Positions 300 to 62,076 of a DNA stretch of 64,000 nucleotides are shown one piece after another; the first letter of the stretch is position 1, and each line of letters starts with the position of its first letter. The stretch lies in assembly GCA_024734495.1 (NCBI GenBank), contig JALMQS010000055.1, forward strand, positions 12,794,863-12,858,862, in the 5' to 3' direction. The notes below the pieces were generated by a model. The model was not told the DNA's origin. It did no database searches and worked only from the letters and a program-made list of their open reading frames with translations. Position numbers and translations under genes: made by a program. The DNA is from Forficula auricularia. Taxonomy: Eukaryota > Arthropoda > Insecta > Dermaptera > Forficulidae.

Positions 300-391
300 T
301 GAGCACCCGTCAGGATTCGAACCCGTGTCTCTCTCCTTTAGCCGAAGTGCGCCTTTACCAACTAGGCCACGGATGATCCCGCCAGGAATGC
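300..391 (-). repeat. tRNA-derived SINE head or tRNA pseudogene
   Basis: Read on the minus strand there is an A-box-like TGGCCTAGTTGG (near 377-366) followed by a B-box-like GGTTCGAATCC (near 323-313), the internal RNA polymerase III promoter arrangement. The acceptor arms do not pair and the anticodon stem is poor, so a working tRNA is unlikely. A short A-rich stretch follows on the minus strand (near 295-280). A SINE head or tRNA pseudogene is the best reading. Confidence 0.45.
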
Positions 392-46400: not shown

Positions 46401-49400
46401 CAAATGAAAGAATATTTGCAAAAGTATAAAAATTGTAGACTTTTAAAAAGTATTTACACGGAAAAAAATAGTAATTATCATAGGACAACTATCAACTCGG
46501 TCTTATAATTTGTAGATTGAATAGAAATTTAAAATAAAAAATTATCAAAAAAATCGAAGAGTACATACATACAGTTTCAAAAACAAGATTAAAATATTCA
46601 AATATTTTTTTTGTATTTTTTTCTATAAAGTATGTAAAAAAACAAAAATTTCAAAAAAAAAATTTGAATTTGGACTATTTTCGAAGAATTCATGAGCGAA
46701 AAACCGAAATTCGATTTCTTTTCAATCGGTGATCAAAAAATTTCAAAATTTACCAGGAAGTGTTTTTAGATGGGTACTAAAAAATATCAAAAAAATGAAG
46801 GAAATCAAAAATTTAAATTTTTCAAACCGTCCGATTTGGCGTGGAATGCCTCATATGTATCACTTATAAAAACTAATAACATATTTTTTTTATTTGTAAA
46901 GATATAAAAACTTAAAAAATTCCAATTGTATTTTCGCGGCCCCTCTACATCCTCTCTGCGGCCCCCCTGTTAAGAATCGCTGGCCTAGACAGTTGAACCA
47001 ATAATATTTTGGAATTAAATTTTTGGTTATAAGTAATAGGAAAATAACGTTTGCTAAATTTTCCCTTAAAATTAAATTGTGAAACCTACCTAGTAGTCTA
47101 ATTCTAATTTTATTAGATATATTTTACCTCGAACCAACACCATGGTCCCTGAATAAAAGCGGACTTGGTTGTTCTGAAATCAGGTATTTGTGAAAACTAG
47201 TAGTCTAGCTTTCATTTTATTTTAAGTCTACTTTGACATTAGATCTTCCTACCCTGTTTGACATGTCTGGTAGTAATTATTTCATTTTTTTCATCATAAT
47301 TGATTATAGCTACTATAAGTCTTGGTTTAATTTAAAATTCATTAAAAAATAAAAACAAGAAGAAGTCAGGTTTTTCTTATTCATCTCTTAACTCGTCAAA
47401 ATTTAATTCGTATTGCATTTAAACTGAAAAACAAAAACATATATTTTTTGTACCGTCCTGGAAAAATATAATGGAGACAAAAACATGATTTCAAGTTAAA
47501 TCAAAATATAGTTCCAAATACACTTTTATAGACAAAACAATTAAATCAAGTAATGGATGACTAAATCGATGCTTATTGTTTATTTTCATAAAATGTTTTT
47601 CTCATTATAAATTTATATATCATTGAACGGAAAATCACAAATAAATAAATTCTCGAATATCAAATGAATATTTTTTTAAATATTTTTTCGAATTGATAAG
47701 TTATCTTGAGATATACGATTCTTAATACTAGTAGAAATCGTATTTGAATCATGAAATGCGCAAAAAGACATAAAATTAAATCGTTTTAAATGCATTCTTA
47801 AAGAAAATATTTAAATTAACTAAATTTTGCATTAAAAAAAAATATTCATTGAAGAACTCCACAATCAGATATCAATAGATTATATATTTGATTAAAATAG
47901 ATATCCATTTATCCACTAACTTGATGAAAACAAATCGTTAATGTATCTTAAACAAGAATCAATTTTTTAAACATTTATTCAAATAATAAAGGCATTAAAA
48001 GATAGTTCTCAATAAGAGACGAATTTCTATTAATGGACCAATTGCCAACTTATTATTATTATTATTTTTTAATTTAATGAATTATATTTTATACTTTAAT
48101 GGAAATTCGTCCATTATTGAGTACTACCTTTTTTTAATCTACATTATTTCAGCACAACTTATTTAGTTTTATCAAAATTTCCAATGCTAACTACTACAAT
48201 ACTAACGTATGGAGAACGCCGTTCCCGCACTGGTTTTAAGAGTTTTTTTTTTTATTTTATCTATTTATTTTAGGGGTTGACAATTTTCAGCGTTCCCACA
48301 GTGCTAAATTTGCGATAACAACACTGTTTTCAAACTATAATTGTCTTTCTAATAAATCTAAATATTTCAAATTAATATTAAAAAATATTTTAGCTAAAAG
48401 TAAATTTTTTAAATATTCATGTTAGATATTTATATTAAGCCGAGATACAATCTGCAATTTATTCTTTAAAAATTAAAAATTCTTCCTACTCTCGACAAAA
48501 TATAATTTTAATGCATTATGCAAATTAATTTTTAAAACGTTTACTCATTGCAAGGTACTAGACTCTGTATATTTATCGGAAAAACCCTTAAGTGATTAAA
48601 ATTATATATATGTACTTCACTTTTTTCTTCTCCAAGTGTCATACTCAATTCCGAGCGTCGCCGATTACTGTGAAGAGTATCCTCTCCATTGTAATTTTCC
48701 TGTGGAAATTTTTCACAGGGGTGGTTCCCCATTGCCTCCCCCTCACTAATTTAAACATAAAATCTTTTAAAAAAATGTCTGACAATTACATATTTTCTTC
48801 ACTATCTTAGTTCTAAAGACAAATCAACATATTTTATATGTGACCTAATTGAATGTAATTCTATTTTATACATGATTTAGGCAGTTTCAGTTGAAATTAT
48901 CATCAATAGATAGTTTTAGCTAATAATATTTTATTATAATAGTAAATATCATCATTTTAAGTAAAATTAGAAACAAACATTCTTAAATGGCGAGAGCTCA
49001 AGCCCTACTCCGTTCCTTAGCTACTGTTATTAACATAAACAGAACACACTCAAATTTATTTTTATAAATTAAGTAAATTTTGGTACAAAATATTAAAAAA
49101 TTGTCTAAGTAATATTCTAAATTACATTGAAAAACAAAAAAATTATAAATTTAACTTATAAATAAATAATGTTAAGCTATTGATAATATAGTAATTACGA
49201 CTTCATCGTGGGTTGGACTTTGTATATAGGTCTGTTTAAAAATGATATAATTCTAATTTTTAATTAATAAATTTCGCAACATCTATTTATTATGTTTTTA
49301 AATAACCTAAAAATCTCTTTATTTATATGTACCAAAACCCGGCCTATTTAAATTTCATTTTTTTTAATGATAGAAATATTTTTTTTTTTTTTTTTTTGTG

Positions 49401-60645: not shown

Positions 60646-61297
60646 CATTTTTAACCGACTTCAAAAAAGGAGGAGGTTCTCTATTCAACTGATACCTTTT
60701 TTGTTAGGTTTTTTCAGGCCTAAATTCTTTGTTTATGAACCGATTTCGATGATTTTTTTTTATTGGAAAGGGGGTATCTTAGAGATGGTGCCATATTAAT
60801 TTGGTCAAGTTCTGATGATATGATAAACGACGAAATAACGTAAATCTCCAATTCTTATGAGCATATAATCGAAATTATGACAAATAAAATCTTATAACAT
60901 TCACTTAAAACCCGCAAACGTTTCTAGAGAATTTCTATATTTATGAATTGAATTTTATTATCATTTTCTGATTCATTCGCCTGAAACGCTTTCTCTTACG
61001 AGATGCATGCAAGATATTATATTAAGTCACTATAATAACATCACTAAAGAGAGAAAAAATAAAAATAATGTTTATAAAAAAAAAAATAAAAAACAAAACG
61101 AACTTCAAAAAACTGAAATGCAACAAATAAAATAATAAGAACTCAAAAAATAAAATAAAATCACACTAAAAGGTATAAAATAATTATCTAATTTAGTTAC
61201 AACTAAACGACGAAATATTAACAATGAAATTACTTCTTTGAAGTCGGTGCCAAACATATACATTTTATGAATCGCACTCGACGGATCTTACTTAGTA

Positions 61298-61567
61298 CTA
61301 ACTTTTAAGGAGTTCGGTGTTGGTTCAAGGTGAAATGCATTTTAATATAATAATAAAACTTGAAAGATATATTTCACAAAAAGAAATATGGGTCAAAATT
61401 GAGTTTTGAATTCGATATATTTCGGAAGAGAGAGAGAAAACTTAGACTTAGAGTCTTAGACTCCTGATGATGGGCTAGCCCCCGAAATATATCGAATTCA
61501 AAACTCAATTTTGTTTTATTTCTTTTGTGAAACCTACCTCGTATTTTACTCAAGTTTTATTATTATA
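61298..61567 (+). mobile_element. 270-bp hammerhead-bearing insertion with exact 11-bp TSD
   Basis: Flanked by CTTACTTAGTA at 61287-61297 and 61568-61578. The other four CCGACTTC copies carry this 11-mer once, so they are empty sites. The insert has ~45 unique bases (CTAACTTTTAAGGAGTTCGG), then inverted arms (ATAATAATAAAACTTGAAAG ... CAAGTTTTATTATTATA). CGATATATTTCGG and CCGAAATATATCG frame the central hammerhead. No protein, no poly(A) tail. Confidence 0.85.
61464..61493 (+). ncRNA. Hammerhead ribozyme motif, complete core
   Basis: CTGATGA, T, helix II GGGC-TA-GCCC, two extra C, then GAAATATATC. Core residues are complete; the UH site is the TC of ATC. Helix III would be the minimal AUAUAU hairpin. 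The bases next to helix II (T and CC) do not pair, a weak point. The flanks GACTC and GAATTC allow interrupted helix I. Confidence 0.6.
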
Positions 61568-62076
61568 CTTACTTAGTACGTTTGGCGGGTACGCTCGCTT
61601 TTAGGTATAGTTTGTTTGGCACCGACTTCAAAAAGTAATTTAATGTTAATATTTCGTCGTTTAGTTGTAACTAAATAAGATAATTATTTTATACCTTTTA
61701 GTGGATTTTATTTTATTTTTAAGTTATTGTTATTTTATTTGTTGCATTTAAGTTTTTTGAAGTCGGTTTTATTTTTTTATAAAAGTTATATATATTCTTA
61801 ACCTATCTTCACATTCTTTTCGATGACTGCTAACAGATTACTGTCCTGGAAAAACAGTTTATTGAAACTATACTTATCTAAAAGTTACTTCTACCTTTCA
61901 ACTCTAAAATTTCCTAAGTATCGTCTTCGAAAATATCAAAGCAGACTCTCACTTTCTATAGTAAAAACAATTTATTTTTGTTTTCAATAAATAATAATTA
62001 ATTAAAATAAAAATATTTATCTTCAAAACTAAAATAAAATGAAATTTTTACAAATATATACGATAAATACCGGGTG

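What the first reader, a model, noticed from the sequence alone, without database searches (positions are those of the whole stretch)
61287..61578. 270-bp ribozyme element dated by an 11-bp target duplication and four empty sites
The insert at 61298-61567 is bounded by exact CTTACTTAGTA repeats. It splits the conserved loop of a CCGACTTC foldback, and the other four copies in the window (9.7, 30.7, 44.3 and 56.6 kb) show that loop unbroken with one CTTACTTAGTA. This gives exact ends for a new short element with inverted arms around a complete hammerhead and no poly(A) tail. A TSD of 11 bp does not fit hAT (8), Harbinger (3) or Tc1/mariner (2), and suggests target-primed insertion.
Basis: seen in the sequence. 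Interest (0 to 1): 0.9.

Follow-up and report, generated by a model that had tools for sequence, protein, structure and literature searches.

The report
Palindromic by-product of a Penelope retrotransposon
The 270-base insert is best read as two short reverse-transcribed copies of the front end of a Penelope-type jumping gene, joined head to head, and dozens of similar copies in the same genome suggest that this enzyme starts copying from both cut DNA strands.

Summary
The insert at 61298-61567 and its target duplication are real. It is not an independent new element. Its arm plus its one-sided 45-nt end match, unbroken (183 nt, 96%), the 5' leader and first codons of a Penelope-like retrotransposon (PLE) locus in the same genome, with an 826-aa open frame ending in a GIY-YIG-like motif. 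The 40 best-scoring copies (window's own included) are head-to-head palindromes. Target duplications of 9-15 bp: 37 of 40, against 7 of 240 controls. The 45-nt 'tail' is at one end only in 40 of 40. Five private changes sit in both arms together (about 0.12 expected), beside 69 one-arm changes. Centres are remade: 34 distinct junctions in 40, differing even between copies without arm substitutions. 52 of 80 arm ends lie near an initiator-like TCAGTT, the presumed RNA start.

Best explanation: reverse transcription starts at two adjacent internal RNA sites, one from each nicked strand, runs to the RNA 5' end, and the two short cDNAs are joined. The hammerhead is a motif of the PLE leader without significant Rfam support. 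New variant of a known kind.

The parts
61287..61297 (+). left target-site duplication CTTACTTAGTA
   Evidence: read as 12 bp with the following C
61299..61345 (-). 'tail', antisense on the top strand: first codons of the PLE frame (between RT start sites 1 and 2), present at this end only
   Evidence: 40 of 40 copies at this end, 0 of 40 at the other
61346..61425 (-). left arm: antisense cDNA of the PLE 5' leader (shortened in this copy)
61426..61453 (.). junction between the two cDNAs (28 nt of filler by the junction script in this copy)
61454..61567 (+). right arm: sense copy of the PLE 5' leader from about +6 to RT start site 1 (...TTATTATTATA)
61464..61493 (+). hammerhead-like core CTGATGA...CGAAA; cut inferred after 61493
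   Evidence: sequence; Rfam 14.0 bits, cut-off 48.5
61568..61578 (+). right target-site duplication CTTACTTAGTA
61237..61632 (.). GAAGTCGG/CCGACTTC foldback that was hit (inner arms 61237-61256 / 61613-61632; outer arms 61147-61228 / 61639-61720)

Best explanation
The insert is a by-product of a Penelope-like retrotransposon (PLE). The PLE RNA starts near an initiator-like TCAGTT. The PLE enzyme nicks both target strands about 12 bp apart. Each free 3' end primes reverse transcription inside the RNA: one at site 1, just before the first ATG of the long frame, the other at site 2, about 45 nt further on. Both cDNAs are short because the RNA 5' end is only about 120-165 nt away, like a retroviral strong-stop product. 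The two cDNA ends are joined, giving a head-to-head palindrome with the 45-nt tail on one side and a target duplication. SHOWN by sequence: parent leader, ends, target duplications, tail on one end, arm symmetry, junction diversity. INFERRED: that the two cDNAs were primed separately in one event, the RNA start, the joining step, and that this PLE's own protein did it.
For: Parent: the arm+tail composite matches L073 unbroken (183 nt, 96.2%) and the frame continues past the tail (MFHLEPTPNSLKVIDD...); by coordinates this is the start of the 826-aa open frame, whose 3' part has SGVYKLTC...FYIGQTGR. Relatives exist that carry PF00078 and PF01541. At least 5 of the 40 leader hits lie 160-170 nt downstream of a GIY-YIG-like frame listed (both lists capped); L072 is one. 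L073 is nearest on average to subfamily C (2.0 mismatches; A 3.9, B 7.2) and shares its 5-nt deletion; L072 is nearest to B (1.4; C 2.5, A 4.0; best B copy 0). Ends: tail at one end in 40 of 40 and in five further palindromes, four seen in sequence (L041/L047, L050:307, L064:4481, nested one in L072) and one from match coordinates (L058:2714). Target duplications 37 of 40. Symmetry: subfamily changes in both arms; 5 private complementary double changes, 0 non-complementary, about 0.12 expected. Junctions: 34 distinct in 40; five copies without substitutions over 201-212 compared columns have five junctions; junction-sharing pairs are no closer than average (0.033 v 0.036). Arm ends: 52 of 80 within -3..+6 of the TCAGTT A. 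Nick context: T at +2 and +3 on both strands, 19-23 of 37 each, background 35%. PMC11167929: a purified PLE protein cuts and extends both strands and starts internally at two adjacent sites.
Against: The 40 copies are the best-scoring of 2110 candidates with a query that has one tail, so tail-less (site1/site1) copies are under-sampled. A single-arm copy with no tail exists (L041:1832-1952); other tail-like matches (L047:6811, L050:9738, L055:6221, L058:8676, L062:824) and a related palindrome (L042:2229-2435) were not resolved. PMC11167929 states no apparent difference in start site between top and bottom strands; that excludes a fixed strand rule, though not one site each per event. There the start sites are 111-118 nt into the frame; here site 1 is just before the long frame's first ATG (98 nt from the hammerhead ATG). 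Junction overlap is not above chance (at least 1 nt in 17 of 40 v 45% of the null; at least 2 nt in 9 of 40 v 15%; filler in 22 of 40). Five of 40 copies differ between arms at marker M4 (L001, L008, L030, L031, L039): later mutations or two templates. The nick p-values (0.0007-0.03) are for positions picked by eye from 32, uncorrected, and A is not enriched at +1, so ATT itself is not reproduced. Three of 40 have no convincing target duplication. Loss at palindrome centres after insertion could create part of the junction diversity. The parent's GIY-YIG match is below Pfam's cut-off (16.9 v 22.6 bits) and its RT region was not read.
Confidence: 0.8

Rival explanations
1. Self-priming: one cDNA (or an antisense RNA) folds back on itself and is extended, making the palindrome from a single template. 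Self-priming on an antisense template was proposed for inverted pLTRs of rotifer PLEs in PMC3846280.
For: Gives matched arms and private symmetric changes; palindromes at PLE inverted junctions were read this way.
Against: Self-copying of one cDNA would give equal outer ends, but the tail is on one end in 40 of 40. L011 carries the subfamily-C 5-nt deletion in one arm only, as two RNA templates would give, though this is one copy of 40 and a second event is possible.
Confidence: 0.1
2. A palindromic non-autonomous element (mini-PLE) that is transcribed and copied as a whole, with arms kept alike by gene conversion and centres altered by deletion after insertion.
For: Many copies with uniform ends; long palindromes are unstable (recalled).
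Against: Copies without arm substitutions have different centres; in L008, L009, L013, L024 and L040 one arm runs past the presumed RNA start. Two subfamilies match PLE loci with coding sequence.
Confidence: 0.1
3. A metazoan retrozyme: a small ribozyme element moved through circular RNA.
For: Hammerhead-like core; animal retrozymes have target duplications longer than 4 bp when present (PMC7229834 passages).
Against: No tandem monomers among the 40 alignments; the copies' arms read through the inferred cut site; parent is a coding PLE; Rfam match 14.0 bits.
Confidence: 0.03
4. A DNA transposon or MITE with long inverted repeats.
For: Long inverted arms.
Against: 45-47 nt lie outside the inverted repeat on one side only; target duplications vary from 9 to 15 bp; parent is a retroelement.
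Confidence: 0.01

Closest known systems
PLEs with inverted pLTR and tail (Penelope families of Adineta vaga, PMC3846280; passages and the Discussion seen)
   Same: Head-to-head inverted pLTR; optional 31-bp tail on one of the inverted pLTRs; pLTR reaches into the frame's first codons; 8-10 bp target duplications in several cases described (others had none)
   Different: There the inverted pLTR adjoins a coding body or captured sequence and self-priming is preferred; here leader arms alone form the insert, in at least 40 similar copies, with arm ends near the presumed RNA start
Poseidon_Ac in vitro (PMC11167929; main text parts 1 and 2 of 4 seen)
   Same: Two adjacent internal RT start sites whose spacing is the tail; hammerhead across the leader-frame junction; AT-rich targets; both strands cut and extended
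   Different: Start sites lie 111-118 nt into the frame there, at its very start here; no strand difference in start site reported; palindromic leader-only insertions not described in the parts seen
L1 twin priming (recalled; the term occurs in papers listed, not read)
   Same: Two target strands prime on element RNA and give an inverted junction
   Different: L1 twin priming inverts a 5' segment from distant internal priming; here both primings lie about 45 nt apart
Metazoan retrozymes (PMC7229834; passages)
   Same: Hammerhead motif, short length, target duplications longer than in plant retrozymes
   Different: No tandem or circular-RNA evidence here; the parent is a coding PLE

Membership tests
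Penelope-like element (the parent) | Reverse transcriptase plus C-terminal GIY-YIG endonuclease in one frame | tested here: inconclusive
   826-aa open frame; GIY-YIG motif by eye and 16.9 bits v cut-off 22.6; some relatives carry PF00078 and PF01541. The RT region of the parent itself was not read.
Penelope-like element (the insert as derivative) | pseudo-LTR that includes the frame's first codons, in direct or inverted order, with an optional 30-40 nt tail | tested here: met
   (tail 45 nt here)
Penelope-like element | Short variable target duplication in AT-rich DNA | tested here: met
   37 of 40, 9-15 bp; duplications richer in A+T than flanks
Penelope-like element | Hammerhead motif at the leader-frame junction | tested here: inconclusive
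   Core letters present; layout compatible; Rfam 14.0 bits, not significant; no hammerhead listed for L073, L065 or L066 at E <= 5
Metazoan retrozyme | Tandem or dimeric monomers with type I hammerhead | tested here: not met
   The 40 copies are head-to-head palindromes
Metazoan retrozyme | Circular RNA | not testable with these tools
   no expression data
DNA transposon / MITE | Inverted repeats at both extreme ends and fixed-length target duplication | tested here: not met
SINE | Internal RNA polymerase III promoter | not tested
   only inspected by eye

The most novel reading that the evidence does not exclude
PLE integration is obligately two-sided: a dimeric enzyme nicks both strands in a similar sequence context, and each subunit primes at a different one of two adjacent RNA sites, sometimes on two different RNA molecules (L011). 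The classic 'pLTR plus inverted pLTR plus tail' layout is then the normal outcome of one long and one short cDNA, and the palindromes are the case in which both cDNAs are strong-stop products. The insert family would be a genomic record of this step.
Probability: 0.5. Interest if true: 0.78.

Novelty: new variant of a known kind. Interest (0 to 1): 0.6.

Why it matters
How PLEs insert, and why they often carry inverted terminal copies with a tail on one side, is open; published views are self-priming on an antisense template (PMC3846280) and in vitro two-strand extension from two internal sites (PMC11167929). This genome offers at least 40 comparable insertions, 37 with target duplication, in which both outer ends and the junction can be read, so the views make different predictions that can be counted. 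It also shows that what looks like a new ribozyme element can be a by-product of a coding retrotransposon.

Tried and rejected
Rfam on the insert and on palindromic loci returned mostly microRNA-like hairpin matches below their cut-offs, as a long hairpin may; not pursued. A SINE reading of the 45-nt head was dropped when it proved to be the start of a coding frame. Joining by microhomology was tested and is not above chance. Six stretches fetched as PLE 5' regions (L065-L070) did not match the arm (0 of 6). The 119-aa and 173-aa fragments gave no Pfam match at E 0.01; the longer L074 piece gave GIY-YIG below cut-off. One viral contigs pattern scan gave 0 matches. Literature: no paper in the library holds Penelope + hammerhead ribozyme + Lepidoptera; one holds Penelope + strong-stop, a fungal Copia paper, not read; one holds Penelope + non-autonomous + palindrom + Lepidoptera, not read. 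PMC12910113 (D. virilis elements): 12 passages seen, none on palindromes or hammerheads. Two papers looked up were not held.

Not answered: genome-wide count of the site1+tail pattern (six requests; machine busy each time).

Full report
WHAT WAS CHECKED. The insert at 61298-61567 lies between two CTTACTTAGTA copies inside a GAAGTCGG/CCGACTTC foldback. Three of the four other foldbacks in the window show the loop unbroken with the exact 11-mer; the fourth, at 56.9 kb, has one mismatch. Host group not established; an insect, probably a moth or butterfly, is my inference (one relative of the parent's protein is named Cydia pomonella, 40% identity).

COPIES. A search with the insert scored 40 of 2110 first-look candidates; all 40 match nearly full length, 39 at 80-86% and the window itself at 100%. 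All 40 were fetched and aligned. The window copy is a divergent one. The majority sequence is a hairpin with 117 pairs and about 45 nt outside it at one end; 23 of 40 copies keep at least 100 of the 117 pairs unchanged, the window copy keeps 76. Exact target duplications of 9-15 bp are found in 37 of 40, against 7 of 240 shifted controls at 9 bp or more and 0 of 240 at 11 or more. The tail is at one end in 40 of 40 and at the other in 0 of 40. Selection by score, with a query that has one tail, favours such copies.

PARENT. A PF01541 search scored 150 of 3423 candidates in this genome. A search with the leader plus upstream sequence scored 40 of 2061. L072, one of these 40, has a frame with YVGQTGRSF..., a stop, a spacer, this leader and the tail; another PLE palindrome with its own target duplication (TTTGTTTTATTT) is nested in it. 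The 119-aa frame of L072 scored 150 of 8657 candidates. Comparing the two capped lists by coordinates, at least 5 of the 40 leader hits (C137 twice, C173, C11, C60) lie 160-170 nt downstream of a listed frame. One frame hit lies in an 826-aa open frame on C32. The 5' stretch of that locus (L073) contains arm and tail without a break, and the frame continues through the tail (MFHLEPTPNSLKVIDD...). Its 3' stretch (L074) encodes SGVYKLTCQDCDAFYIGQTGR, Pfam GIY-YIG 16.9 bits, below the cut-off of 22.6. Of 95 relatives found, several carry PF00078 and PF01541. L073 shares the 5-nt deletion of palindrome subfamily C and is nearest to it on average (2.0 mismatches v 3.9 for A and 7.2 for B); L072's 3' part is nearest to B (1.4 v 2.5 for C and 4.0 for A). 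Only these two coding loci were compared.

ARMS. Three subfamilies (21, 11 and 8 copies) differ at paired positions. Marker M2 has the B state in both arms in 11 copies and in one arm alone in none; M3 in both arms in 10; the 5-nt deletion is in both arms in 8 and in one arm in 1 (L011); M4 agrees in 34, differs in 5 and has a gap in 1; M5, close to the centre, is readable in both arms in 22, with 21 agreeing. Beyond these, over 83 outer pairs, five private changes sit in both arms and are complementary; none is non-complementary; 0.12 complementary expected if the arms mutated apart; one-arm changes number 69 (37 left, 32 right). So the arms were alike at birth and aged apart. L011: two templates, or a second event.

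CENTRES. The junction script finds 34 distinct junctions in 40 copies. L003, L005, L021, L034 and L039 have no substitution between them over 201-212 compared columns (gaps ignored), and five different junctions; L021, L034 and L039 also share the 5-nt deletion. Pairs that share a junction are not closer than average (9 pairs; 0.033 v 0.036). Overlap at the junction is not above the null; 22 of 40 have filler. 52 of 80 arm ends lie between -3 and +6 of the A in TCAGTT (22 of 40 tail-side, 30 of 40 other side); 23 of 80 are shorter and 5 of 80 longer. TCAGTT as an arthropod initiator is recalled. The longer ones (L008, L009, L013, L024, L040) run into sequence like that upstream of the leader in L041, L072 and L073. 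L041 holds, within 6 kb, one of the 40 (L030), a single arm without tail, and an asymmetric copy whose left arm runs past the start into the upstream sequence.

NICKS. Read on its own strand, each nick has T enriched at +2 and +3: 19 and 23 of 37 on the top strand, 21 and 22 of 37 on the bottom; background 35%; p 0.03, 0.0007, 0.006, 0.002, for positions picked by eye and uncorrected. A is not enriched at +1 (16% and 32%), so the ATT of PMC11167929 is matched only in its T's. The likeness of the two strands fits one enzyme cutting both, as a hint.

HAMMERHEAD. The core CTGATGA...CGAAA is present, with an ATG starting at its last A; a cut inferred after C at 61493 falls 24 nt from that ATG. [quoted passage not shown] here that ATG is soon closed by a stop in the majority sequence and the long frame starts about 100 nt later. 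A pairing AGUUUU/AAAACU, usable as stem I, appears in the predicted fold of the majority leader (-5.7 kcal/mol), but the predicted fold is not the hammerhead fold, and the pairing is absent from those of L073 and subfamily B. Rfam gives 14.0 bits for the window arm and no hammerhead for L073, L065 or L066. Activity is untested. The scored copies read through the inferred cut, so their templates were uncut there.

MECHANISM. Two priming events, one per nicked strand, at two internal sites about 45 nt apart, each running to the RNA start, account for the tail on one end, the target duplication, matched arms, new junctions and the arm ends. PMC11167929 reports internal starts at two adjacent sites and extension of both strands, with no apparent strand difference in start site; one site each per event, in either assignment, agrees with that, but the paper does not show it in the parts seen. 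Self-priming accounts for matched arms but not for the one-sided tail. Copying of a palindromic master accounts for copy number but not for centres that differ among copies without arm substitutions. What remains inferred is listed under Best explanation.

NOVELTY. Inverted pLTRs and one-sided tails are known for PLEs (PMC3846280; PMC8969392 passages). In the papers seen in part and the nine searches made I saw no description of leader-only palindromes formed anew with one start site per strand; most listed papers were not opened.

On re-reading the calls I corrected wording and added counter-evidence (marker M4, strand statement of PMC11167929, uncorrected nick test, unresolved matches).

Noticed in passing
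window 47077-47166: Second, decayed match to the PLE leader/tail (79% over 72 nt, E 8e-7), apparently from a related PLE family.
   Followed up: partly
window 10.2, 30.9, 44.5, 56.9 and 61.2 kb: Five copies of a GAAGTCGG/CCGACTTC foldback element; 10 motif hits against 0.06 expected.
   Followed up: partly
L072:1698-1976 and flanks: A palindrome of another PLE family nested in a PLE leader with a 12-bp target duplication and its own one-sided tail.
   Followed up: partly
L050:307 and L064:4481-4573: Small palindromes of a further PLE family, tail on one end only; in L050 the arms are very short.
   Followed up: partly
L042:2229-2435: Related palindrome with the same hammerhead-like core in a different arm sequence; outer ends not resolved.
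   Followed up: no
G000:C563 about 410889-416831: Three GIY-YIG hits at about 2.9-kb spacing on one strand, which looks like a tandem PLE array of another family; the stretch read (L065) contains ACTGATGATGAAGACC...CGAAACTATAGTC, hammerhead-like in a predicted fold but without an Rfam match.
   Followed up: partly
L041:1832-1952: Single leader arm without partner or tail, ending near the presumed RNA start, inside another inverted repeat.
   Followed up: no
L052, last kb (C337 about 399.3-399.8 kb): Broken PLE-like frame with a YIDD motif near one of the palindromes; no Pfam match for a 173-aa piece at E 0.01.
   Followed up: partly
window 302-376: tRNA match on the minus strand at 29.8 bits, just above the cut-off of 29.
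   Followed up: no
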